Shown here one piece after another: positions 9,060 through 23,162 of a DNA stretch of 64,000 bases. Within the stretch, counting starts at the first letter, position 1, and every line of letters starts with the position of its first letter. The stretch comes from Alistipes sp. (GTDB taxonomy: Bacteria > Bacteroidota > Bacteroidia > Bacteroidales > Rikenellaceae). Made by a program: the position numbers and the translations under genes. The DNA lies in NCBI GenBank assembly GCA_017463615.1, contig JAFTOU010000027.1:62001-126000 (forward strand). The letters are read 5' to 3'. The notes beneath the pieces were generated by a model. The model was not told the DNA's origin. It saw only the letters and a list, made by a program, of their open reading frames with translations, and searched no databases.

Positions 9060-9093
9060 CAAAGGTAGCGCTGAGTTGTGCCAAAATTTGGCA
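9060..9093 (-). promoter_or_regulatory. P1-type promoter/palindrome E, orphan
   Basis: On the minus strand TTTTGGC (GCCAAAA at 9080-9086) is followed after exactly 12 nt by TACCTTTG (CAAAGGTA at 9060-9067). The TTTTGGC is the right half of the palindrome TGCCAAATTTTGGCA. No recognisable gene follows on this strand; transcription would run antisense into the 8094 gene. Confidence 0.5.
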
Positions 9094-9133: not shown

Positions 9134-9160
9134 AAAATCACCTTTTGGTGAGGTGATTTT
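9134..9160 (-). terminator. Hairpin terminator overlapping the stop codon of the 9138 gene
   Basis: A perfect 10-bp stem AAAATCACCT/AGGTGATTTT (9134-9143 with 9151-9160). The TGA stop of the hydrolase gene (9138-9140) lies in the stem, and the minus-strand arm ends in TTTT. Confidence 0.6.
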
Positions 9161-9794
9161 CTGCTATGCACTGCTCTATGAGGTCGAGCGTCGAAGGGGT
9201 GGTGCGGTGAGCACCGTTGGGGTCTTCGATGATGGTGTAGTTACATGCGGCGAGTGTTTGGCGAGCTTGGGCGGCGGCATCATCACCGAGCAGTTCGTCG
9301 TGGGCGGCGAAGATGGCGTAGTTTGCTTTACCGAGCGAAGGGGTGTGCGATGCGATATACTCTTCATAATCGCAGCACATCTGCTCTGTCAATTCAAATT
9401 CGCGAGCACCATTTATACGGCGGCAGAAGTATTTATGCACACCTAAGCCGATGGTATTGCGCACGCAGTCGGCAATCGACAAGGCAGGATTGCAGACAAT
9501 CTTCACTGCATCGGGCGCATCGGCATAGAGCACGGTCAGGCCACCCATAGAGCTACCAATAATCAGCGAGGGCTGTAGGCGAGCAATAAATCGGTTGAGA
9601 ATCTTCACATTCTTCTCAATATCTTCACCAAAATCAGCAACACCCCACGCAAACTGAGGGAAACGCTTCTGAATATTCAAAAAGGTCTGCGAGCTAGCAC
9701 CTGATGCAAGACCGTGGACATAGATTGCGTGCAGTGGGCGTCGTCTTGGCTTTTGAACTTTGCGGACAGCAGAGGTAGATGTTTTTGTTGTCAT
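9138..9794 (-). CDS. Alpha/beta-hydrolase, YqiA/UPF0227-like small esterase
   Basis: 218 residues. A small alpha/beta-hydrolase: YVHGLASG near the start of the fold, the nucleophile elbow GSSMGG, a late Asp in AAHDELLG, and a His in NGAHRTTP that could complete a Ser-Asp-His triad. The closest recognisable relatives are YqiA-type esterases. The basic N-terminus (about 20 residues rich in K, R, T and S) is unusual and is not a signal peptide. Transcription probably starts from the P1-type promoter at 9834-9860, which links it to the 9-23 kb island. Substrate unknown. Confidence 0.78.
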   Translation of the reverse strand: MTTKTSTSAVRKVQKPRRRPLHAIYVHGLASGASSQTFLNIQKRFPQFAWGVADFGEDIEKNVKILNRFIARLQPSLIIGSSMGGLTVLYADAPDAVKIVCNPALSIADCVRNTIGLGVHKYFCRRINGAREFELTEQMCCDYEEYIASHTPSLGKANYAIFAAHDELLGDDAAAQARQTLAACNYTIIEDPNGAHRTTPSTLDLIEQCIAENHLTKR

Positions 9795-9833: not shown

Positions 9834-9877
9834 CAAAGATAGTTCCCACTTACGCCAAAATGTGGCACAAGTGGGAA
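9834..9877 (-). promoter_or_regulatory. P1-type promoter D inside a 35-bp palindrome
   Basis: Minus-strand TTTTGGC (9854-9860) lies exactly 12 nt from TATCTTTG (9834-9841), giving a leader of about 33 nt for the hydrolase at 9794. The site is embedded in a larger inverted repeat, TTCCCACTT (9843-9851) with AAGTGGGAA (9869-9877). Confidence 0.6.
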
Positions 9878-9899: not shown

Positions 9900-10481
9900 T
9901 TAGTCTGCTTGCGTGTAGTGAATGTAATATATCCGAGAGCTCGCATCAACATTGTATAGACCAAATTCAGCCTTTAACTTATCAACGGAGTCAATCTCCC
10001 GATTACAAAAATCGCTCACAAATCGGCAAGCCTCTTTAGCAGTACGAAAGTCGTGAACTGTCCACTCGCCCTCCTCATCCTGAAGTACGACCCTATGTGA
10101 CGCAAAATATCTACCTCCAACATCGTTGGTCTCAAACACACCACCGGCAAACTCCTCAGCGCGATAATAGAATATGAGTGAGGGATAGCGCTCGCAAATA
10201 AAGTTGCGCACCTGGTCTAGCTCCACCCATTTAGAATCAACAGTAAATGTTAAAACACCTCTCTGCTCATCCAGCTCAAGGTCGCACCACTCTCCAGGGC
10301 AATAGTAGTCGGTCGGCTCACCACCCAACGAACTAATTAGCCTTCCCAGCCAGACATACTGCTGTGCCGCGCTATTTTCTTTGGAGCTACTATCCACAAG
10401 AGAGTGCATTTTTGCGTAAAGGTCTTGCAACTCCTGCAACTCACCCTCAACAATGTACTCTGTGGTACAGATATTTGCCAT
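9900..10481 (-). CDS. Hypothetical protein with ferredoxin-like (YubB/Api92-type) features
   Basis: 193 residues, soluble, acidic. The start MANICTTEYIVEGELQELQDL and the later PGEWCDLELDEQRGVLTFTVDSKW resemble the YubB/Api92-like ferredoxin fold found on plasmids and phages of many bacteria. This is pattern resemblance only. It ends WTVHDFRTAKEACRFVSDF...YYIHYTQ. It follows the 10532 gene by about 50 nt in the same direction, so the two may form a small operon at the left border of the island. Function unknown. Confidence 0.6.
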   Translation of the reverse strand: MANICTTEYIVEGELQELQDLYAKMHSLVDSSSKENSAAQQYVWLGRLISSLGGEPTDYYCPGEWCDLELDEQRGVLTFTVDSKWVELDQVRNFICERYPSLIFYYRAEEFAGGVFETNDVGGRYFASHRVVLQDEEGEWTVHDFRTAKEACRFVSDFCNREIDSVDKLKAEFGLYNVDASSRIYYIHYTQAD

Positions 10482-10998: not shown

Positions 10999-11032
10999 TG
11001 CCGGGTTTTGGCGCATGTAGCTAATATCTTTG
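10999..11032 (+). promoter_or_regulatory. P1-type promoter C of the WYL regulator gene
   Basis: TGCC-GGGT-TTTTGGC-like half-sites (10999-11015), with TTTTGGC at 11006-11012, 12 nt, then TATCTTTG at 11025-11032. It lies about 70 nt before the ATG at 11105. The same arrangement occurs at four other sites in the island, so autoregulation by the WYL protein is possible. A further TATATTTG box lies at 10974-10981. Confidence 0.55.
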
Positions 11033-11104: not shown

Positions 11105-12277
11105 ATGGCGGCACATCTATTTAAGCGTTATGTTTGGTTGCTTGACCTAATAGATAGGACAGGCGGAGTAGACTACGACGAGATTAGTAGCAAATGGGAG
11201 GCTTCGGCCCTTAACAAATATCAAGAGCCGCTACCTCGACGCACTCTGCACAACCACATCGCGGCAATCTCTGATATGTTCGGCATCGACATCGTCTGTC
11301 GCCGACAGGGTGGGTACAGATATGTAATAGAAAATAGCGGAGATAACAGCGATTCAAAAATGCAACAAAATCTGGTCTCTCAGCTGCGAATAGCTAATGT
11401 AATGATGAATCATTCAAAATTACAGAAGCGCATTGTTATGGATCAATATAAGCAGTTCCGATGGTTTACTCCGCTGATAACGGCGATGGAGCAGGATAAA
11501 GCTGTGAAGGTAATCTATTTTGACCCAAACAAGGATAGGATGGACGCAAAACGCTCAACAATAACCATTGAGCCATACTTCATAAATCAGTTTGATAAGT
11601 ATTTTCTCATTGGGCGCGCCCGCGAGGACGGATTGGTGCACGCCTTTGCACTCCAATCAATACGTCGCATAGATATTACCGACGAGATATTCTCTATGCC
11701 AAAAGATTTTGATATCCAGGCCTATATTGCCGACCCGCCATACTATGATACGGCTGATTGCGTGGACAATGATGATGCTACATTCCTTGCAGAGCGTGTC
11801 TATAGCGTGCGAAGGAGTCGTTGGAGTGATGATTTCTCGCCTCAAGACGGCGAGGTTGATTATGCAAAATTAGATGTGACCCACGATAAGATTGCTCGAA
11901 ATGCCCACCTAACAGAGAAATACCAGAAACGACATCTCTTCGGAATTACTCTATATGAGACCCCTTATGATGATATGGGTTTTGTAGTATTTCTGCAAAA
12001 CTACACCCCAACAACACGCCCATATATTTACGCTGTGATGTTTGATAATTGTATCGAGGTGAAAATTGCGTTGGACAACAGAGAGATAATTGATACTAAT
12101 CGTAGAGGTAGAGAGACCCCGCAGGGTGTTGCTAAGCTCTATAGTCGTGTATGCGACTGGCTTGACGAAAGTTGCCAGGAAAAGAAGTTTAACGGTACAA
12201 ATAGCGAGTACGCGCTGTGGCTGTGGAATCACTTCTACGCCCCAAGTCCAATGCTACTTAGGCTCCTTCAGGAATAG
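11105..12277 (+). CDS. WYL-domain transcriptional regulator
   Basis: 390 residues. The N-terminal ~80 residues form a winged-helix-like DNA-binding region (LPRRTLHNHIAAISDMFGI...GGYRYVIEN). A WYL domain follows at about 130-200 (KAVKVIYFDPNKDRM, IEPYFINQFDKYFLIGRARE, FALQSIRRIDI), then a long C-terminal WCX-like region. WYL regulators sense nucleic-acid fragments or other ligands and often control defence or DNA-repair operons. The gene heads the rightward half of the island, and its own promoter carries the P1 palindrome. I infer, but cannot show, that it controls the P1 sites. Confidence 0.88.
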   Translation: MAAHLFKRYVWLLDLIDRTGGVDYDEISSKWEASALNKYQEPLPRRTLHNHIAAISDMFGIDIVCRRQGGYRYVIENSGDNSDSKMQQNLVSQLRIANVMMNHSKLQKRIVMDQYKQFRWFTPLITAMEQDKAVKVIYFDPNKDRMDAKRSTITIEPYFINQFDKYFLIGRAREDGLVHAFALQSIRRIDITDEIFSMPKDFDIQAYIADPPYYDTADCVDNDDATFLAERVYSVRRSRWSDDFSPQDGEVDYAKLDVTHDKIARNAHLTEKYQKRHLFGITLYETPYDDMGFVVFLQNYTPTTRPYIYAVMFDNCIEVKIALDNREIIDTNRRGRETPQGVAKLYSRVCDWLDESCQEKKFNGTNSEYALWLWNHFYAPSPMLLRLLQE

Positions 12278-12310
12278 TCCCAACCCGCCACACAACCGCC
12301 CTCCAGAAAA

Positions 12311-12342
12311 TTTGACATTCTCGGGAAAGTTGCTTAATTTTG
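12311..12342 (+). promoter_or_regulatory. P2 promoter, copy 1, before the PD-(D/E)XK gene
   Basis: TTTGACA at 12311-12317 and TAATTTTG at 12335-12342 with a 20-nt spacer after TTTG: a full Bacteroidota promoter. The 37 nt from 12311 are identical at 34 positions to those starting at 15483 before the second nuclease gene. Confidence 0.7.
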
Positions 12343-12380
12343 TAAAGAGAAACGCGTGAGCCATGTAAACACAAATATAT

Positions 12381-13691: not shown

Positions 13692-13802
13692 CCCTCCTCC
13701 ACTCATTTTGCATAAATAGTAGTGCGAGGCTTTATAATCTTCCCTGTCGAAACCATCGGCAGGGATTTTTTTGCACCTTTTTAACCAGTGCCAACTTTTG
13801 GC
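13692..13802 (+). repeat. Cassette 3' block, copy 1: stem-loop, terminator and P1 palindrome
   Basis: About 111 nt closely similar to 16509-16619. It holds a first imperfect stem-loop (13692-13729), then a rho-independent terminator, then a shared stretch (CTTTTTAACCAGTGCC) leading into the P1 palindrome. Each copy immediately follows a nuclease gene. Confidence 0.75.
13742..13772 (+). terminator. Rho-independent terminator after the PD-(D/E)XK gene
   Basis: Stem CCCTGTCG (13742-13749) with CGGCAGGG (13757-13764), one G-T pair, followed by a run of seven T after one A. Confidence 0.85.
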
Positions 13803-13822
13803 GCATCTTTTATTTTTCTTTG
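13788..13822 (+). promoter_or_regulatory. P1-type promoter B
   Basis: Palindrome GTGCCAACTTTTGGCGC (13788-13804), with TTTTGGC at 13796-13802, 12 nt, then TTTCTTTG (13815-13822), a one-base departure from TAnnTTTG. The predicted start lies about 20 nt before the ATG at 13850. Confidence 0.55.
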
Positions 13823-14833: not shown

Positions 14834-15481
14834 ATGAAACACTACATGGAACTTACAGACGGAATATGCATTGAGGCATTTCCGAGGGCGGAACAGTCCG
14901 AAGAGATTGAAACAGACAACCTCGCACTCGATACTACGGGCGAGTTTTTGCAGATGGGCGGAGGGCTAAAACGACATAAAAAGATAGCAACCTGCACCAA
15001 CGAAGAGCAGTTAAAACTCTTTTTGCAGAATGCCCGCCGACTGATTGGCGAGAGCGATAGAATCATGTCGGATAGCCGTATGTTCCTCGCTTCGCTGCCT
15101 ATTCGCAACGGCTTGGCATATATAGGCACTTCGGGATTTAACAACCCAACCTTAGGCGTCTATATCGAGTGGTGGCGCAATAACGAATGTGCGTGGACAA
15201 AGGATAAATTCGGGGAGTTGCAACCGATATACTATATCGCAGGTAGCCCGTTGAGCGGCCGCAATGCGTGTGCCTATATCGGTCCGGAGGGGGATAGTCG
15301 CAGCGTACAAGTGCTCAACTTTTCGCAGGTATGGCACTCGTTTGTACAGATCAACACCCACTACACCGAAGCCAAGCAACTCTACGAAGCCTACTCGTTA
15401 GAGGAGGTTATTGAGATTCTGTTCAGGGATAGTACATACAACACGAATGATGCAGACTATACAGCCAACACGCCGAACTAA
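14834..15481 (+). CDS. Hypothetical protein, island
   Basis: 215 residues, acidic, soluble; no family recognised. Features: EFLQMGGGLKRHKKIATC, SDRIMSDSRMFLASLPIRNG, a Trp/Gly-rich stretch around GVYIEWWRNNECAWTKDKFG, and PLSGRNACAYIGPEGDSR. It begins three bases after the stop of the 13850 gene (TAGCAGATG), indicating coupling. Its TAA stop lies two bases before the TTTG of the second P2 promoter. Function unknown. Confidence 0.5.
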   Translation: MKHYMELTDGICIEAFPRAEQSEEIETDNLALDTTGEFLQMGGGLKRHKKIATCTNEEQLKLFLQNARRLIGESDRIMSDSRMFLASLPIRNGLAYIGTSGFNNPTLGVYIEWWRNNECAWTKDKFGELQPIYYIAGSPLSGRNACAYIGPEGDSRSVQVLNFSQVWHSFVQINTHYTEAKQLYEAYSLEEVIEILFRDSTYNTNDADYTANTPN

Positions 15482-15482
15482 A

Positions 15483-15514
15483 TTTGATATTCTCGGAAAA
15501 GTTGTTTAATTTTG
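15483..15514 (+). promoter_or_regulatory. P2 promoter, copy 2, before the GIY-YIG gene
   Basis: TTTG at 15483-15486, a 20-nt spacer, then TAATTTTG at 15507-15514. Spacer and flanks match copy 1 at 12311 with three mismatches in 37 nt. Confidence 0.7.
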
Positions 15515-15596
15515 TAAAGGAACGAAAAGGTAGCCGTAATGAGATTATGACTACACGCAAACATAAACCTTAATTAAAAAGCTCACTCAAACGATT

Positions 15597-16508: not shown

Positions 16509-16619
16509 TCCCCTCGCTCATTGTGCGTAAAAAGTAGCGCAGTGAGGGTTCTAATCTTCCCTGTCGATGATTTCGACAGGGATTTTTTTGCATCTTTTTA
16601 ACCAGTGCCAACTTTTGGC
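16509..16619 (+). repeat. Cassette 3' block, copy 2
   Basis: About 111 nt similar to 13692-13802: stem-loop CCCTCGCT...AGTGAGGG, then the terminator, then the shared stretch into the P1 palindrome. The differences keep both hairpins pairable; the terminator stem here is perfect where copy 1 has a G-T pair. Confidence 0.75.
16559..16588 (+). terminator. Rho-independent terminator after the GIY-YIG gene
   Basis: Perfect stem CCCTGTCGA (16559-16567) with TCGACAGGG (16573-16581), followed by A and seven T. Confidence 0.88.
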
Positions 16620-16639
16620 ACTAGTTATCTATACCTTTG
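16604..16639 (+). promoter_or_regulatory. P1-type promoter A with perfect 19-bp palindrome, before the ligase/MoxR/VWA operon
   Basis: AGTGCCAA-CTT-TTGGCACT (16604-16622) is a perfect palindrome. TTTTGGC (16613-16619) is 12 nt from TACCTTTG (16632-16639). The predicted leader is about 98 nt. At 16678-16711 a weaker relative of the P2 sequence may be a second promoter. Confidence 0.6.
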
Positions 16640-16743: not shown

Positions 16744-17347
16744 ATGTGCAAAACGTTAAATTTCAGAATTGGAGAGAGAGATTTTGATCTTGCGCCCACA
16801 AAGGTTGAACGCAAGAAACTCTATGGGTGGACTGAGACGCAGGTAACTACCTCCGATGGGCAAGTGTGCCGTCAGGCGGGGCTTGACAGAAGTGGCAAAA
16901 TAATCATCCCCAAGGGGGCGATAAAGATTGGCTGCGTCGCCAATGATGGTCAGTGGGTTGATAAGTCGCAGTTTGTCGCCGTACACGCTGATGGTCAGAG
17001 GGCCGAGAGTATCGCCTCGTCATTTGACATGCCAATAACTCTTGACAACAAAGCGACCGCAGAGCAGCTGCTTGACCTCCGTGTCACGGCTGTATATCAG
17101 CTAAGTGGAGAGTCTATCGGCGAGCTGAACAGCATGCTGAGTGATGAAATTTACACCTTCCCATTTAGCTACCGAGGGGGGTTACGAGACCTCCACAGCC
17201 TTTCTGCTAACAAATGGCACAACGCCATATCTAATCACGGGCGAGCCAATGATGTTTGAGTATGTTGATTTAGAGGATACCAGCGTACTGACAGATGGTG
17301 ATGATTTTGATTTAGAGGATGATGAACTTGATTTTAGCATGATGTAG
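16744..17347 (+). pseudogene. First gene of the island operon, interrupted by a one-base frameshift in a G run
   Basis: The frame from the ATG at 16744 reads 171 residues and stops at 17257-17259. The natural protein seems to continue in the next frame: at 17176-17181 there is a run of six G. Removing one G joins FPFSYRGG to YETSTAFLLTNGTTPYLITG and an acidic tail (DGDDFDLEDDELDFSMM) that ends at 17347, two bases before the next ATG. The restored protein would have about 200 residues. No family recognised. The shift could be a sequencing error, a phase-variable tract, or a true mutation. Confidence 0.65.
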
Positions 17348-17348
17348 T

Positions 17349-18050
17349 ATGAGAGCAATTAACCTATCAAACGACAAAAACCGAAATGCTCAAGTAGGTT
17401 TTGAACAGAAGAGAACTAAGAGTGATATCAGAATGGTCTGCAGCGATGGGCGCGAGCACCAGAATGCGCGTTTCCTCAAATCTACGATTGATACCGAGGT
17501 TGACAAGCTCGTTGAGCAAGCGGGCTCTGCAGAGCAGTTACTTGCCGATATCATCAACTCAGACCCTGAGATTGACCTCGAGCGAGTAGGTATGCAACTT
17601 ACGGGGGTACGCAAGATTTACATCTCCGACATGAGTGATATTGTCCACAGCATCCACCGCAACGAGGTGGTCTTTACGCCCAATGGAGAACTAAAGGAGT
17701 CGCGACCGTACGAAGATGTTGAGTCGAACATCAACACCGACATTCCGCTGCGATGGACTGGCAAACTGATTCCAAAGCAGAAGGCAGTACGAATGTTCGT
17801 ATTCTCTCGCAAGTATCAAATCAAGCACATCAACGGCTTGACATACGACTTCCTCTACGACATGGCAAAACAGCTATCCGAGAAGGGGGCTGTAATGCTA
17901 CTCGGAGCGGGCAGCAAGGGTGTTGGGCCTGTTGTACTGAGCAACGGCGGTGTCTCCTATCGTGCCTTTCTTGAGGGTCGTATCTCCGATGATGGTAAAT
18001 ACTGTCTTATTCTTCACTTAACAAATCTCGAACTTAAAGCAATAGCATAA
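17349..18050 (+). CDS. Hypothetical protein of the ligase/MoxR/VWA operon
   Basis: 233 residues, soluble, no recognised family. Seen: a Lys/Arg-rich start, a helical middle with LVEQAGSAEQLLADIINSD, then GVRKIYISDMSDIVHSIHRN, WTGKLIPKQKAVRMFVFSRK, and a C-terminal half with YDFLYDMAKQLSEKGAVMLL and a Gly-rich GAGSKGVGPVVLSNGG. It starts one base after the previous frame's stop (TAGTATG) and ends one base before the ligase ATG (TAATATG), so the three are translationally coupled. Immediate adjacency to the ligase suggests a dedicated partner, but the role is unknown. Confidence 0.6.
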   Translation: MRAINLSNDKNRNAQVGFEQKRTKSDIRMVCSDGREHQNARFLKSTIDTEVDKLVEQAGSAEQLLADIINSDPEIDLERVGMQLTGVRKIYISDMSDIVHSIHRNEVVFTPNGELKESRPYEDVESNINTDIPLRWTGKLIPKQKAVRMFVFSRKYQIKHINGLTYDFLYDMAKQLSEKGAVMLLGAGSKGVGPVVLSNGGVSYRAFLEGRISDDGKYCLILHLTNLELKAIA

Positions 18051-18051
18051 T

Positions 18052-19422
18052 ATGAAAACAAACTTTTCTGAGTTAGCCAAGAGCTACAAACGCAAAATTT
18101 CTAACACATTTTTCCTTGTCAATGGCGAGCAGGTAGCAGAGATAAAGAGCGACAAATACTGTGTAACCCGCAAGATTGACGGAACGATGCAGATGCTCTT
18201 CTATCGTGATGGCGAAGCTGTAGCCGTATCAACTTCGGGCATTGAGCGTCGTGGTCTACCCTGCCTTGCAGAGTTTGCATCACTTGTAGAGCGCGCAGGG
18301 TTCAAGAGTGCAACTGTCGTTGCTGAGCTCTATGCAGTGTTAAACGACTCTGGCAGAGAGCGTGTTTGCAATGTTGCTACCGCCATTGCCGACAAGTCAC
18401 TAAACGAGCGCCTAAAGCTCGCCATCTTCGACCTTATAGACCTTGACGATGAACAAGTGACAGCAGAGTATAGCGAAAAACTGAAAAAGGCTGCCGAGCT
18501 ATTTACCGGTGAGCGGGTTCACACTGTTCAGTCCCGCGATGTAACCTCCCCAGAGGAGGTGAGCAAACTCTACGAAGAATGGGTTAATGAGAGTGGCGCA
18601 GAGGGACTTGTCGTACATACCAATAGCCCTATTGTCTACAAAGTAAAGCCAGTACACAATGTTGATGCTGTAATTATAGGCTACACCCTCCGCGAGGCTC
18701 CCAACAATAACTCTATCCGCGACATTATGATTGCTGTAATGCGTCCCGATGGCCTTTTCCAGCAATTTGCCGTAACGGGTAGTGGTTTCTCGCAGACAAC
18801 ACGCCGCCAGATGTACGACCTGCTTGCGCCACTTACGACTAACAGTGACTATGTTGAGACCGACTCGCGCAATATAGCCTTCCAGATGGTGCGTCCAGAG
18901 GTTGTCATAGAGCTCTCCGTAGGAGATTTCGTTGCCGAAGATTCATCAGGCAATGCAAAGATGAACACTCTGCTCTCATACTCCGAGCAGCAAGGTTATA
19001 AAGCCGAGGCAAGCACCCCTGGAGTCGCATGCCATCACGCACGCTTTGTATGTATAAGAGATGACAAAGATGTCGATGCTACATCTATTCGAATCTCGCA
19101 GATTACAGATATCTGTCCATTCTCCGAGAGAGGGGCTGTGAGCTATGGTCCTCTACCCACCTCCGAAGTGATCTATCGCAGAGTCTTCACCAAAGGCGTT
19201 GGCGAGAAGGCTATGGTGCAAAAGTATATCATCTGGCGTACTAACAAAGTAGATAGCGGACTCTTCCCTAACTATGTTTTCCACTACACCGACTTTAGCA
19301 TCAGTCGCAAGGAGCAGCTTAAACGAGATATCAGGGTTTCGTCCAGCGAGGAGCAGATCATCTCTTTTGCCGAGGAGTTTATCGCAGCCAATGTAAAGAA
19401 GGGCTGGAGCGAAGTTGCATAA
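18052..19422 (+). CDS. ATP-dependent polynucleotide (DNA/RNA) ligase-like nucleotidyltransferase
   Basis: 456 residues. The nucleotidyltransferase motifs are in order: motif I KIDG with the adenylated Lys at 41, motif Ia STSGIERRG, motif III VVAELYA, motif IIIa IFDLIDLDD, motif IV EGLVV and motif V YKVKP. An OB-fold-like segment follows (DAVIIGYTLRE, AVMRPDGLFQQFAVTGSGF). This is the core of ATP-dependent DNA ligases, but RNA ligases cannot be excluded. The last ~150 residues (from about 300) are an extra region of unknown fold. There is no LigD-type polymerase or Ku nearby. It sits in the middle of the seven-gene operon with MoxR and VWA genes. Confidence 0.8.
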   Translation: MKTNFSELAKSYKRKISNTFFLVNGEQVAEIKSDKYCVTRKIDGTMQMLFYRDGEAVAVSTSGIERRGLPCLAEFASLVERAGFKSATVVAELYAVLNDSGRERVCNVATAIADKSLNERLKLAIFDLIDLDDEQVTAEYSEKLKKAAELFTGERVHTVQSRDVTSPEEVSKLYEEWVNESGAEGLVVHTNSPIVYKVKPVHNVDAVIIGYTLREAPNNNSIRDIMIAVMRPDGLFQQFAVTGSGFSQTTRRQMYDLLAPLTTNSDYVETDSRNIAFQMVRPEVVIELSVGDFVAEDSSGNAKMNTLLSYSEQQGYKAEASTPGVACHHARFVCIRDDKDVDATSIRISQITDICPFSERGAVSYGPLPTSEVIYRRVFTKGVGEKAMVQKYIIWRTNKVDSGLFPNYVFHYTDFSISRKEQLKRDIRVSSSEEQIISFAEEFIAANVKKGWSEVA

Positions 19423-19439
19423 CCTAAAAGATTATAACA

Positions 19440-20036
19440 ATGACAAGAAAAACAATAATACCACCTACCACCACAGAGGTAGAGGACTTAGTAGAGTCGT
19501 TATCCAAATTAGAGGCGCACAAATCAGGCAATCCATTCTCGATGGAGAGGTACTTTATGTGGCTCAAAGAGTCTAAATATTTCAAGTATGTTGGCAACTT
19601 TCACCCTGTATCTGAACATATATTCATATTCAGACCTATTGACAACATCCAGATCTATTTTAAGCTCTGGGCTGTAAATATCCCGGCATACAATATCTCG
19701 ATTCCGTTCTCGACCATTGAGGCGGCTATTGAGATTACACAGCGCACTATTGACTTTATGTTAGAGGATAGAGACCATATCCACCGGCAATGCGAAGCGC
19801 TATTCTCACAAGAAATAAAGGGTAGCGGACTAACCTACGCCTTTGTGCGCAACGACGACCCAAAGCGAAAGACCAATTCTGAGTGCGCCTATGTAAAGAT
19901 GGGAATGAGCACTATTGTCTTCTCATTCAATGAGATGACAAACAAGCAGAGCTTTGAGAAGATGGTTCACCACGCACTCAAATATAGAGATATTTATAGA
20001 AAATATACCAAATACAACTGTTTTGTAAGGCTATAG
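19440..20036 (+). CDS. Hypothetical protein of the island operon (paralogue-like to the next gene)
   Basis: 198 residues, no recognised family. Distinctive elements: RYFMWLKESKYFKYVGN, FIFRPIDNIQIYFKLW, and a helical ITQRTIDFMLEDRDHIHRQC. The next gene has the same order of elements (ELFMYLRQSPYAKYLSN, FGFQPF, then IIKKVIEMIENPSIAKEY), so the two look like diverged tandem duplicates. No membrane segments. It starts 17 nt after the ligase stop. Role unknown; a structural or adaptor part for the ATPase or ligase is one possibility. Confidence 0.6.
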   Translation: MTRKTIIPPTTTEVEDLVESLSKLEAHKSGNPFSMERYFMWLKESKYFKYVGNFHPVSEHIFIFRPIDNIQIYFKLWAVNIPAYNISIPFSTIEAAIEITQRTIDFMLEDRDHIHRQCEALFSQEIKGSGLTYAFVRNDDPKRKTNSECAYVKMGMSTIVFSFNEMTNKQSFEKMVHHALKYRDIYRKYTKYNCFVRL

Positions 20037-20038
20037 TT

Positions 20039-20737
20039 ATGATTAGAGTAGAATATATACCCCAGCCAGATGCACTAAATTATCTATTAAGTATAGGCAA
20101 GAGAATGCATTTCCACGACAAGGATGAGAATCAGTGGGAGCTATTCATGTACCTACGCCAGAGCCCATACGCAAAATACCTAAGCAACGAGTCAAACGAC
20201 CACTCGTGGTTTGGCTTTCAGCCATTTACTGACGGTAGATTCACACTAAAACTATCCTATTCAAAGATTGAGGTGTTCAGAAACAATGAAAATATCTTTC
20301 ATCACTTCATAAGGTTCACATCTCGCGATGGTAGGCGTTGGATTATCAAGAAGGTTATAGAGATGATTGAAAACCCCTCTATAGCAAAAGAGTATGCTCG
20401 CAAAGTAGCGGCGCAGAAGGCACATCAGAACATGATTATTCAAACCACTGAAGATGCTATCAGAAATAAGCTAAGTGCACTCGGATGCACTGCAATCAAC
20501 ATCTCCTTTGAGATGTCTTCCGGAGGTGGCTGGCAGATGCCTATCAAAGATATAAAGTTCAGGTTTACCTATCAAGGTTCATATTTTCAACTATCATTAG
20601 ATTTCAACCACCTCTCCGACCTACTAAACGAGATAGAGTATCTTATCGGAGACTATATGAAGTTAAGGAGTGAAAAGCGTGGTCGCATTATGGATACAAA
20701 CAATTTACCGCGCGACTTAAAATGGATAACAGCATAA
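20039..20737 (+). CDS. Hypothetical protein of the island operon
   Basis: 232 residues, soluble, no recognised family. The N-terminal 150 residues resemble the preceding protein in the order of WLxxSxYxKYxxN-type, aromatic FxFxPxxD-type and helical segments. It is longer at the C-terminus (LGCTAINISFEMSSGGGWQM, FNHLSDLLNEIEYLIGDYM). It begins two bases after its neighbour's stop and ends four bases before the MoxR ATG. Both genes keep clean open frames, arguing for selection on both copies. Confidence 0.6.
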   Translation: MIRVEYIPQPDALNYLLSIGKRMHFHDKDENQWELFMYLRQSPYAKYLSNESNDHSWFGFQPFTDGRFTLKLSYSKIEVFRNNENIFHHFIRFTSRDGRRWIIKKVIEMIENPSIAKEYARKVAAQKAHQNMIIQTTEDAIRNKLSALGCTAINISFEMSSGGGWQMPIKDIKFRFTYQGSYFQLSLDFNHLSDLLNEIEYLIGDYMKLRSEKRGRIMDTNNLPRDLKWITA

Positions 20738-20741
20738 CATT

Positions 20742-21800
20742 ATGGTAATAACAATATCAACACAAGATCTACTACAAGTAGTGGCACATACACCAGCCAC
20801 ACAGAACATTATGCTTGCAGGCAAGCACGGTATCGGCAAGTCAAAGATACTCACCGACTACTTTGAGCAGCAGGGGCAGCGGGTAGTAACCCTCTTCCTT
20901 GGGCAGATGAGTGACCCTGGCGACTTGATAGGTCTGCCGCGCAAAAACGAGCAGAGTGGCAAGACCGAATTTATGCCACCCTACTGGTTTCCTACAGACG
21001 GCAAGCCGATAGTCCTCTTTCTGGACGAGCTAAACCGTGCTCGTCCAGAGATTCTGCAGACGATTATGGACTTGGCGCTCAATCGCCGCTTGGCGGGTCG
21101 CCCACTACCCGAAGGTAGCCGTATAATCTCTGCCGTAAACGATGGCGATGAGTATCAGCTCACCGACCTTGACCCTGCACTCATATCGCGTTTTAACATC
21201 TACACCTTTGTACCAACGACTGCCGACTGGCTCATTTGGGCAGAGAAACACGGTATTGACCCGCGCATTATCAAGTTTATACAGAGCAACGAATCTATGC
21301 TTGATTCTACTATTAACAACGATGGCAGTTCATCGCTTGAGAAGTCCCCCGACCGTCGTGCGTGGGAGCGAGTATCGCATATCATCAAGGATGTCAAAAA
21401 TATTGACACTATATTTAGTAAAATTATCGCCGGTATTGTCGGTTCAAAGGCTACTGCGGCATTTATGGCGAGCATTGCGAACGACGATATCATCTCCGCC
21501 AAAGAGCTTCTTGCCTCCTTCGACGCTGTGCAGGAGATCCTCAATAGATACGAGGTGCATCAGCTGAGCATCCTCAACGAACGCGTATATCGCCATCTTG
21601 AGACCGCCAAAAGCGTTAAGCCAAAAGAGGGTGTTAGCCTAAAAAAATATATCGAGTGGCTAAGCAACAGTAGGCGTGAGGCTATGGCACACTTCTGCTC
21701 GTTGTATGAGAAGAACAACTACTCAAAGGCAAATGTATTTATGATGATTAACACCCCCGAGTGCTTCAAAATTATAACCAGCTTCTTAAAATCTATTTAG
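20742..21800 (+). CDS. MoxR-family AAA+ ATPase
   Basis: 352 residues. Walker A AGKHGIGKS at 26-34, GQMSDPGDLIGLPR (a typical MoxR/CbbQ region), Walker B VLFLDELNRA at about 88-97, a sensor-1-like ISAVNDGD, and an arginine-finger region LDPALISRFNIY. MoxR ATPases work with VWA proteins to remodel or activate a target complex, and a VWA gene follows after 12 nt. The C-terminal ~150 residues are helical and less conserved. Cytoplasmic. The target is unknown; the co-encoded ligase is an obvious candidate by context only. Confidence 0.9.
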   Translation: MVITISTQDLLQVVAHTPATQNIMLAGKHGIGKSKILTDYFEQQGQRVVTLFLGQMSDPGDLIGLPRKNEQSGKTEFMPPYWFPTDGKPIVLFLDELNRARPEILQTIMDLALNRRLAGRPLPEGSRIISAVNDGDEYQLTDLDPALISRFNIYTFVPTTADWLIWAEKHGIDPRIIKFIQSNESMLDSTINNDGSSSLEKSPDRRAWERVSHIIKDVKNIDTIFSKIIAGIVGSKATAAFMASIANDDIISAKELLASFDAVQEILNRYEVHQLSILNERVYRHLETAKSVKPKEGVSLKKYIEWLSNSRREAMAHFCSLYEKNNYSKANVFMMINTPECFKIITSFLKSI

Positions 21801-21812
21801 CTTCAATTTAAT

Positions 21813-23111
21813 ATGCACCCTATTCTGCAAAAGATATCTACCGAGTGGTTCCTGCTGGAGCCTGCCCTATTCTCCACCCTTCTGACCCACAAAATAGTTG
21901 CCAACCCCAATCTCATGGGGTTGTTTCGAGTGGGTCAGATGCGATTGGAGTACAACCCTGCATTGTTAAACGAAGAGCAAGATATCAACACAGTGGAGCT
22001 GCGCCTCCGCTATGAGGTGGTGCGAATACTGCTCGGTCATCCCTATATGCGACAGCCACTCAACGCTATCCCCTATATGATGACATTAGCGAGCAACCGC
22101 ACCATCATCGACAACTTCCCGATGGCTTCGAACCACCTTCTTGGAGGTGAACTTGAGCTGGAAAGTGGGCTCTGCTTTGAGGAGTATTACGCACTACTAA
22201 GCAAGATGTACAGCCAAATGCCAGACAATAGTGTATCGGATAACACATCGGACAATAGCGAGCAAGATGCGCAAGGAGCAGACGAGGCTCAGGACAATCA
22301 GTCTGAGGATAGTGGCTCAGATGGTGACGGAGAGCAATATGACAACGGAGCACAAGATGGCGACGAGGCAAAGTGTGAAAACGACACCGAGCAGGAGCAA
22401 ATGCTCAGCGAGCAGTCCGAACTTTGGGAGGAGAGTCCGTTGGCGCAGGATACAATCCATGAGAGTATTCGTTCTATCTCCGAATCTAACTCGTGGGGAA
22501 CACTCCCAGGCGATATAGTGGAGCAGATAAAGAGCAGCCTCATCGTAAAGGTAGACTATCGCCGTATTCTATCAATGTTCCGTGCCTCAGTGCTCTCCAG
22601 TAAACGCCACTTGACCAGGATGCTACCCTCGCGTCGCTATGGCTTTGATTTTATGGGCAGCAAGCGAGACTTCTCAACACGCCTATTGGTTGCTATAGAT
22701 GTCAGCGGCTCAATAGATTCTAAACAGATAGAGGTGGCATTGGCTGTGATAAATAAGGCCTTCAGATATGGTGTAGAGGCTATTGATGTCATCCAATTTG
22801 ATACCGAAATTCATGGTTCTGCCACGCACCTACAGCGAAAGATTAACACCTTCGATATCAAAGGTCGCGGCGGCACAAATTTCCAACCTGCCGTAGATTA
22901 TTATGCCTCAAATAATTACGACGGTCTATTTATCATTACCGACGGCTACGCCCCGCAACCCACACTTCCTCCCAGCTTCCACGGTGGCATCCTTTGGATG
23001 CTGTACAACGAAAGCGCATACAAGAGTAACAACCGCTACACACTACCGTCATCGCTACAGTGGCTCTGCTCAATGCCCCGCTCCCGCCACCTAATCCTTC
23101 CGCCCGTATAA
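21813..23111 (+). CDS. VWA-domain protein with degenerate DUF2201-type metallopeptidase-like N-terminus
   Basis: 432 residues. The N-terminal part (1-135) resembles the putative metallopeptidase region of DUF2201 proteins, but where HExxH is expected it reads RYEVVRILLGH, so both zinc-binding His of the motif are absent. A low-complexity acidic/Asn/Ser linker follows (about 135-210). The C-terminal VWA domain has a complete MIDAS: DVSGS at about 295-299, the Thr in KGRGGTNFQPAV and the Asp in IITDGYAP. MoxR plus VWA pairs form chaperone-like modules. It is the last gene of the operon, followed by a strong hairpin. Confidence 0.87.
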   Translation: MHPILQKISTEWFLLEPALFSTLLTHKIVANPNLMGLFRVGQMRLEYNPALLNEEQDINTVELRLRYEVVRILLGHPYMRQPLNAIPYMMTLASNRTIIDNFPMASNHLLGGELELESGLCFEEYYALLSKMYSQMPDNSVSDNTSDNSEQDAQGADEAQDNQSEDSGSDGDGEQYDNGAQDGDEAKCENDTEQEQMLSEQSELWEESPLAQDTIHESIRSISESNSWGTLPGDIVEQIKSSLIVKVDYRRILSMFRASVLSSKRHLTRMLPSRRYGFDFMGSKRDFSTRLLVAIDVSGSIDSKQIEVALAVINKAFRYGVEAIDVIQFDTEIHGSATHLQRKINTFDIKGRGGTNFQPAVDYYASNNYDGLFIITDGYAPQPTLPPSFHGGILWMLYNESAYKSNNRYTLPSSLQWLCSMPRSRHLILPPV

Positions 23112-23113
23112 CG

Positions 23114-23145
23114 CCAGCGAGGTTGGACAAATCCAACCTCGCTGG
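23114..23145 (+). terminator. Strong hairpin at the end of the island operon
   Basis: A perfect 14-bp stem CCAGCGAGGTTGGA (23114-23127) with its complement (23132-23145) and a 4-nt loop, starting three bases after the VWA stop. The usual long T run is missing (GTGTATAAAAAG follows). Confidence 0.65.
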
Positions 23146-23162
23146 TGTATAAAAAGTCTGGG

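What the first reader, a model, noticed from the sequence alone, without database searches (positions are those of the whole stretch)
16744..23111. Seven-gene operon: polynucleotide ligase with MoxR ATPase, VWA protein and four unknown proteins
Seen: seven co-directional genes with gaps of 1-17 nt, a P1 palindrome promoter before them and a strong hairpin after them. Known: MoxR ATPases and VWA proteins act as paired remodelling modules; ATP-dependent ligases seal nicks in DNA or RNA. Inference: the MoxR-VWA pair may load or switch the ligase (or its acidic partner) on damaged nucleic acid, as a repair or defence system. I know of no described system with this exact set. The neighbouring WYL regulator and two nucleases strengthen the idea of a nucleic-acid-linked conflict or stress system.
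Basis: partly seen in the sequence, partly recalled or inferred. Interest (0 to 1): 0.88.

Follow-up and report, generated by a model that had tools for sequence, protein, structure and literature searches.

The report
WYL-linked three-protein DNA ligase module
Next to a regulator that probably controls it, a gut bacterium carries a DNA-joining enzyme with two partner proteins of unknown function; the same trio recurs in bacteria of many phyla and is sometimes hitched to different protein-remodelling modules, which suggests an unstudied, on-demand DNA-break repair system.

Summary
The operon is real (16744-23111, +). Two corrections. (1) Gene 1 changes reading frame at about 17174-17181; its acidic tail lies in another frame, and relatives carry one intact ~200-aa gene. 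(2) The seven genes are not one conserved unit.

The conserved unit is the first three genes: g1, g3 and an ATP-dependent DNA ligase. Starting from g3 alone, g1 was found in 76 and the ligase in 72 of 80 loci, from 11 phyla by record title. g1 and g3 have no credible Pfam match. MoxR-VWA of the window's type is in 6 of 80 loci; TerY-type VWA with PP2C in another 6, in three of them fused to the ligase. A few loci carry DNA-end-processing genes. No Ku was found in 10 genomes with the ligase.

Best reading: a WYL-controlled, Ku-independent DNA-break sealing module with exchangeable VWA-based remodellers. The biochemistry is untested, structure prediction was off, and one older paper on TerY systems could not be read.

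The parts
16549..16639 (+). 91-nt intergenic cassette: terminator of the upstream gene, then the P1 palindrome and a Bacteroidales-type -7 element (TAnnTTTG, recalled consensus); second copy at 13732-13822
   Evidence: 81% identical direct repeat; terminator-like hairpin 16558-16582
16606..16639 (+). P1 promoter/operator-like motif of the ligase operon: TGCCA-N4-TTGGC-N12-TAnnTTTG
   Evidence: pattern searches, WYL association; a perfect match also lies 125 nt upstream of g1 in G234
16744..17259 (+). g1: N-terminal ~145 residues match the family; the open frame then ends out of frame
   Evidence: alignment A3, frame check
17249..17347 (+). acidic C-terminal tail of g1, in another frame than its body
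   Evidence: 47 of 71 relatives end in [DE].?[LI]DFSM plus up to two residues
17349..18050 (+). g3: 233-aa conserved protein, no known family
   Evidence: A4; no credible Pfam hit among 76 members (2 at E 0.006 to one family)
18052..19422 (+). ATP-dependent DNA ligase: nucleotidyltransferase domain, OB domain, and a ~110-aa C-terminal extension of unknown family
   Evidence: Pfam, PDB profile search, catalytic motifs, extension scan
19440..20036 (+). g5: unknown protein, also in L033
20039..20737 (+). g6: unknown protein, in 2 of 268 family genomes
20742..21800 (+). MoxR-like AAA+ ATPase (Walker A GKHGIGKS, Walker B VLFLDE)
   Evidence: Pfam AAA_5, phrog_1297 E 2.5e-56, motif check
21813..23111 (+). 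VWA protein of DUF2201 type: MIDAS DVSGS present, no HExxH in its metallopeptidase-like half (DUF2201_N 22.2 bits, under its 23.2 cut-off)
   Evidence: Pfam, phrog_1314, motif check
23111..23148 (+). strong hairpin after the operon
   Evidence: fold -33.1 kcal/mol, z -7.3
11105..12277 (+). WYL-domain regulator, candidate controller of P1
   Evidence: PF13280 19.6 bits, just under cut-off; some homologues carry P1 directly upstream
10999..11032 (+). P1 site (1 mismatch) 73 nt before the WYL gene
13789..13822 (+). P1 site (1 mismatch) before the 13820-15481 genes
9834..9867 (-). P1 site before the 9138-9794 (-) gene
9060..9093 (-). P1 site reading leftward; target unclear

Best explanation
The core is a three-protein DNA-break sealing module. 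The ligase seals 5'-phosphate/3'-OH breaks in DNA with ATP. g3 and the acidic g1 form its platform: g3 (mildly basic) is the likely DNA-end or ligase-binding part, and g1, with its acidic DxDFSMF-type tail, a recruiting or regulatory tether in the manner of the acidic tip of SSB (analogy recalled, not tested). In this genome the module carries an extra MoxR-VWA pair, which most likely uses ATP to assemble, load or strip the ligase complex; some other lineages have a TerY-type VWA with PP2C (and usually a kinase) instead, or a TerY-like VWA fused straight to the ligase. Expression is held by the neighbouring WYL regulator, whose presumed palindromic operator overlaps the presumed -33 promoter element; damage-derived nucleic acid, as reported for other WYL proteins, would switch the operon on. 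Shown here: the trio recurs together, its catalytic motifs are intact, it is repeatedly linked to VWA modules and occasionally to DNA-end-processing genes, no Ku in 10 genomes, and P1 sites associate with WYL genes. Inferred: substrate, roles of g1 and g3, action of MoxR-VWA, WYL binding to P1, repression and inducer.
For: Trio: g1 in 76 and ligase in 72 of 80 loci found through g3. Where the stretch has room (2 loci dropped), g1 lies within 700 nt upstream in 69 of 71 and the ligase within 300 nt downstream on the same strand in 61 of 73. Distances of g1, g3 and ligase correlate at 0.93-0.94 over 61 loci against a permuted maximum of 0.17. Ligase: K41 67/67; E92, E184, G185, K197, K199, R336, D338, K339 68/68; D43, G44 67/68; F126 65/68; D127 62/68; the best PDB profile matches (to 1e-19) are DNA ligases. 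VWA links: window-type MoxR and VWA in 6 of 80 loci, at least 4 changes on the trio tree (5 of 41 rows); TerY VWA and PP2C together in 6 of 80, the TerY match lying inside the ligase frame in three Treponema loci, L081, L088 and L091 (in L088 34% identity to the separate TerY of the same locus); a SWIM, MoxR, DUF5682 and VWA gene run after the ligase in L051. DNA-end neighbours: LigD phosphoesterase beside the ligase in L094, L106 and L026; AEP-like protein in L087 and L110 (23.2 bits in L087, under its 27 cut-off) and an endo/exonuclease-phosphatase in L087, L110, L112; a pair that looks like SbcD and SbcC in L104 (Metallophos and AAA_23); a Strawberry-notch-type helicase in L035-L037. No Ku in 10 of 10 genomes with a ligase match, 5 of them at least 90% complete. 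P1: 86 sites in 50 of 268 genomes; 42 within 10 kb of a WYL homologue (1.03 expected) and 15 within 150 nt before one (0.008 expected). WYL regulators BrxR and CapW bind inverted repeats or palindromes in promoters of defence loci (passages of PMC9122601 and PMC9122588).
Against: No assay and no structure (structure prediction off). g1 and g3 have no recognisable fold, so their roles are guesses. The end-processing neighbours are each rare (1 to 3 of 80 loci); in most loci I identified none. About 13 of 80 loci have a VWA module; most do not, some because flanks are short, and in L045 the pair lies 3.5 kb from the ligase with other genes between. The loci are not independent (near-copies such as L045, L048, L049), and the distance correlation has no control gene: any genes inherited together would show it. 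Five loci with room for a ligase show none in the stretch held (L037, L044, L046, L057, L109). g3 was found in only 1 of 395 Bacteroidota genomes drawn evenly. In the window g1 is frame-disrupted, so this copy may be defective or the assembly wrong. P1-WYL: 44 of 86 sites have no WYL match within 10 kb, and only 12 of 90 WYL matches have P1 directly upstream; about 18 reversed-pattern control hits arose (my count of its rows); G234 has P1 but no WYL match; no relative of the window's WYL protein appeared in the 80 wider loci.
Confidence: 0.5

Rival explanations
1. Defence module: the ligase trio protects or repairs host DNA while nucleases act on phage DNA, or reseals damage in a phage-triggered response, under a defence-type WYL repressor.
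For: Sporadic distribution (10 of 268 family genomes); low-GC variable region with a PD-(D/E)XK nuclease; WYL regulators, TerY-P triads and MoxR-vWA pairs are all reported in conflict systems (passages of PMC9122601, PMC9122588, PMC11090510, PMC7159879); DUF2779-family genes in the stretch of 9 of 80 loci.
Against: No PADLOC match for any of the 10 window proteins scanned; the informative neighbours include repair genes; I recognised no toxin-like effector in the operon; no relative of ligase or g3 in the phage records, of g3 in the plasmids, or of either in the pattern-limited viral-contig scans, and only one weak partial ligase match in plasmids.
Confidence: 0.25
2. RNA repair: the ligase seals RNA broken by toxins.
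For: The substrate has not been tested; RNA ligation is a known counter to RNA-cutting immune effectors (passages of PMC7824862).
Against: Pfam and PDB profiles place the enzyme with DNA ligases, with the OB domain and motif VI RxDK; among the neighbours that I had Pfam-scanned, a small part of all, none was an RNA kinase or RtcB-like ligase.
Confidence: 0.07
3. No single system: a widespread ligase trio and an unrelated phage-type MoxR-VWA pair happen to share an operon here.
For: Most trio loci lack MoxR-VWA; the MoxR and VWA proteins match phage families (phrog_1297, phrog_1314), and distant relatives of the VWA protein occur in 104 phage records.
Against: The pair has joined or left the trio repeatedly (4 changes); in 268 family genomes the VWA protein occurs only in the two that also have g6 and the trio; ligase-VWA fusions exist.
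Confidence: 0.18

Closest known systems
LigD / bacterial NHEJ ligases
   Same: ATP-dependent DNA ligase without an N-terminal DNA-binding domain; in a few loci beside a LigD phosphoesterase or an AEP-like protein
   Different: no Ku in 10 of 10 genomes tested; different regular partners (g1, g3); C-terminal extension of unknown family; VWA modules
Archaeal and eukaryotic DNA ligase I-type enzymes (best PDB profile matches)
   Same: nucleotidyltransferase and OB domains with the catalytic motifs
   Different: lacks the N-terminal DNA-binding domain (the match begins near residue 20-40), sporadic, with operon partners
MoxR-vWA systems (eLife 52696; jumbo-phage pairs)
   Same: MoxR AAA+ beside a VWA protein with a metallopeptidase-like half, as described for jumbo phages (PMC7824862, passage)
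   Different: no third component recognised in the operon; HExxH absent; partner is a DNA ligase trio. A further AAA+ protein (PF00004) does lie near the trio in 8 of 80 loci, 3 of them with MoxR-VWA
TerY-P triads (VWA, PP2C, kinase)
   Same: found beside the same ligase family, with TerY-like VWA fused to it in three loci
   Different: not in this operon; MoxR-VWA is there instead
BrxR/CapW WYL regulators
   Same: WYL protein with a palindromic site in its own and its neighbours' promoters
   Different: motif precedes a Bacteroidales-type -7 element; the operon is a ligase module; binding not tested

Membership tests
ATP-dependent DNA ligase superfamily | motifs I (KxDG), III, IV, V and VI (RxDK) plus OB domain | tested here: met
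ATP-dependent DNA ligase superfamily | sealing of nicked DNA with ATP | not testable with these tools
   needs purified protein
LigD/Ku NHEJ | Ku in the same genome | tested here: not met
   0 of 10 genomes with a ligase match, 5 of them at least 90% complete
LigD/Ku NHEJ | LigD phosphoesterase domain in the genome | tested here: not met
   0 of 1, own genome; beside the ligase in three other loci
MoxR-vWA ternary conflict systems | MoxR of the ternary type | tested here: not met
   only bpMoxR was among the matches, 20.5 bits against cut-off 27
MoxR-vWA ternary conflict systems | VMAP, iSTAND, FtsH or beta-propeller third component | tested here: inconclusive
   none recognised among the operon proteins; an AAA+ (PF00004) protein lies near the trio in 8 of 80 other loci
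DUF2201-type VWA with MoxR partner (as in phages) | sequence match, adjacency, MIDAS | tested here: met
DUF2201-type metallopeptidase | HExxH zinc motif | tested here: not met
   absent in the window protein and in the 6 relatives checked
TerY-P triad | TerY VWA, PP2C and kinase together | tested here: not met
   no PP2C or kinase among the operon proteins; all three present in relatives L035-L037, L088, L091
BrxR/CapW-like WYL regulators | WYL domain | tested here: inconclusive
   19.6 bits against cut-off 21.8
BrxR/CapW-like WYL regulators | palindromic site in own promoter | tested here: met
   P1 73 nt before the WYL gene; 12 of 90 WYL matches, in 11 genomes
Known anti-phage defence systems | match to a PADLOC model | tested here: not met
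   0 of 10 proteins at E up to 1

The most novel reading that the evidence does not exclude
An undescribed DNA-break repair pathway spread over many bacterial phyla: a dedicated DNA ligase with two regular partners of new protein families that does Ku-independent end joining or nick sealing, is driven in part of its range by interchangeable VWA switches (MoxR-, kinase/phosphatase- or fusion-type), and is induced in Rikenellaceae by a WYL sensor.
Probability: 0.4. Interest if true: 0.9.

Novelty: new variant of a known kind. Interest (0 to 1): 0.74.

Why it matters
Two protein families without a credible Pfam match travel with a DNA ligase of intact motifs across 11 phyla and in genomes without detectable Ku. 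If the trio seals breaks, it gives such bacteria a repair route not known to me, links MoxR- and TerY-type VWA switches to a defined enzyme, and makes the WYL-P1 circuit of Rikenellaceae directly testable.

Tried and rejected
Homology of the ligase C-terminal extension to a known domain (I suspected WGR): no Pfam support in 16 members. Phage or plasmid origin of the trio: no relatives of ligase or g3 in phages or of g3 in plasmids, none in two viral-contig scans; one partial 29% ligase match on a Sinorhizobium plasmid. Ku-type NHEJ: rejected. g5 and g6 as duplicates of each other: 12-22% identity, left open. A P1-like palindrome before g1 outside the family: one lookalike in a Desulfobacterales locus (L038), not pursued. 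Trio rarity: g3 in 395 Bacteroidota genomes drawn evenly matched only the own genome. Prior description: nine paper searches (those aimed at this gene set are 35, 55, 77, 78, 91) listed no paper that I could recognise as describing a ligase-MoxR-VWA set; I read passages of four of the listed papers on conflict systems and WYL regulators and of the jumbo-phage paper, not whole texts. Anantharaman et al. 2012 on TerY-linked DNA-processing systems, which could mention a ligase, is not held and was not read; nor was Burroughs and Aravind 2016.

Full report
OBSERVATION. Pfam gives a DNA ligase (both domains over cut-off), an AAA_5/MoxR-like ATPase and a DUF2201-type VWA protein; g1, g3, g5 and g6 have no credible hit. 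PADLOC finds nothing in 10 proteins. PHROGs places the ATPase and VWA protein with phage families. The hairpin after the operon is strong. The first gene is not intact as assembled: compared with the L033 copy, its frame changes at about 17174-17181 and its acidic tail is read in another frame. Whether this is an assembly error or a real mutation is open.

THE CORE IS THREE GENES. In the family of the host (268 genomes) ligase relatives occur in 10. In the nine others, g1, g3 and ligase lie in a row in eight (in G210 g3 is broken), and in G209 the ligase is broken and turned round; MoxR, VWA, g5 and g6 were seen only in G234. The VWA protein and g6, searched over all 268, occur in the host and G234 alone. 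A pattern-based scan of a collection of 84,980 genomes with the g3 alignment gave 293 relatives, of which the best 80 were kept; some of these are the family loci again and a few are near-copies of each other. Among the 80, g1 is in 76 and the ligase in 72; window-type MoxR and VWA in 6; g5 and g6 in 1. Where the stretch has room (over 700 nt upstream, over 900 downstream; 2 loci dropped), g1 lies within 700 nt upstream in 69 of 71 and the ligase within 300 nt downstream on the same strand in 61 of 73; of the 12 others, 7 have a ligase elsewhere in the stretch and 5 have none. Over 61 loci with all three, pairwise distances of g1, g3 and ligase correlate at 0.93-0.94 against a permuted maximum of 0.17. 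That fits inheritance as a unit; no unrelated gene was run as a control. The quick tree of these loci holds 11 phyla by record title. An even draw of 395 Bacteroidota genomes found g3 only in the host: widespread but rare.

THE LIGASE. Over 68 sequences the catalytic lysine, the DG of motif I, the glutamates of motifs III and IV, both lysines of motif V and RxDK of motif VI are all but invariant; the aspartate of motif IIIa is kept in 62 of 68 (motif names recalled). The best PDB profile matches are DNA ligases. The match begins near the start of the protein, so the N-terminal DNA-binding domain of ligase I is missing; instead about 110 conserved residues of unknown family follow the OB domain. 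Activity was not tested.

g1 AND g3. No credible Pfam match among 71 and 76 members; PDB profile hits are chance-level. g1 is strongly acidic (median net charge -23) and 47 of 71 end in a DFSM-type tail; g3 is slightly basic (+4). Their roles in my model are inference.

VWA MODULES. Window-type MoxR-VWA is in L033, L045, L046, L059, L062 and L078: beside the trio or part of it in most, 3.5 kb away in L045, and without a ligase in L046. On the tree the trait needs at least 4 changes over 41 rows with enough flank, 5 of them positive. The tree neighbours of L033, L035 and L036, carry instead a Strawberry-notch-type helicase, kinase, TerY-like VWA and PP2C. TerY and PP2C occur together in 6 of 80 loci. 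In three Treponema loci (L081, L088, L091) the TerY match lies inside the ligase frame; in L088 the fused part is 34% identical to the separate TerY of that locus. In Pseudobacteroides (L051) SWIM, MoxR, DUF5682 and VWA genes follow the ligase, and L102 has a SWIM gene there. About 13 of 80 loci thus have a VWA module; the association is recurrent, not general.

DNA-END NEIGHBOURS. LigD phosphoesterase beside the ligase in L094, L106 and L026 (the last outside the 80); an AEP-like protein, under its Pfam cut-off, in L087 and L110; an endo/exonuclease-phosphatase in L087, L110 and L112; genes that look like SbcD and SbcC after the ligase in L104. Each is rare; together they point to DNA ends. 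Ku is absent in 10 of 10 genomes with a ligase match; the control rang in 1 of 14 genomes, Bacillus subtilis.

LINK TO A WYL REGULATOR. In the family there are 86 sites in 50 of 268 genomes, against about 18 reversed-control hits (my count of the printed rows). WYL homologues were searched independently (90 matches in 64 of 268 genomes): 42 of 86 sites lie within 10 kb of one (1.03 expected) and 15 lie within 150 nt before a WYL start (0.008 expected), at 12 WYL genes in 11 genomes. The other 44 sites and 78 WYL matches lack the link, so P1 serves some of these regulators only, or others besides. A perfect site precedes g1 in G234, another genus, which has no WYL match. A 91-nt terminator-plus-P1 cassette is duplicated before two operons of the window. 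Palindromic or inverted-repeat sites in promoters, bound by WYL repressors of defence loci, are reported for CapW and BrxR (passages); ssDNA as signal is reported for PafBC and DriD (search listing only). That the WYL protein binds P1 here, and represses, is inference.

CONTEXT. The region from about 9 to 23 kb is lower in GC than its surroundings, and DNA similarity to the relative whose FtsY is 93% identical (G044) ends at about 8761, so the operon sits in a variable region; the right edge was not settled. Host: the same-genus genome G097 has a 3,921-base contig like the record L090 (Alistipes sp.), hence an Alistipes-like Rikenellaceae member; this is my inference.

VERDICT. A real, recurrent three-protein ligase module, unnamed as far as my paper searches show, carrying here a MoxR-VWA pair and a WYL-associated promoter. 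The most likely function is on-demand sealing of DNA breaks (0.5), with defence as the chief rival (0.25).

Noticed in passing
window 9060, 9834, 10999, 13789, 16606; contig C51 of the own genome; 50 of 268 family genomes: P1 motif marks what looks like a set of WYL-linked islands in Rikenellaceae; some genomes have 3-4 sites within 3-14 kb (e.g. G036:C17, G090:C11, G172:C1). The cargo of the other islands was not examined.
   Followed up: partly
window 12308-12347 and 15480-15519: A second duplicated 40-nt promoter-like intergenic element (93% identical) before the nuclease gene and the 15597 gene.
   Followed up: no
window 9900-10481 (-): Protein of a family (c11) that lies near the trio in 7 of 80 loci; 39% identical to the L033 member. 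Unexplained companion in Bacteroidales.
   Followed up: partly
L055, L056, L058, L067, L072, L074, L077, L078, L082: DUF2779-family gene in the same stretch as the trio in 9 of 80 loci (Pfam match shown for L067).
   Followed up: no
L033, L036, L037, L058, L059, L062, L086, L088: An AAA+ ATPase (PF00004 in L036) in the same stretch as the trio in 8 of 80 loci.
   Followed up: no
L046: g1, g3, MoxR and VWA in a row with no ligase in the stretch held.
   Followed up: no
L089:6791-7162: Small protein with a DFDGT motif (HAD-like by eye, no Pfam hit) overlapping the ligase end.
   Followed up: no
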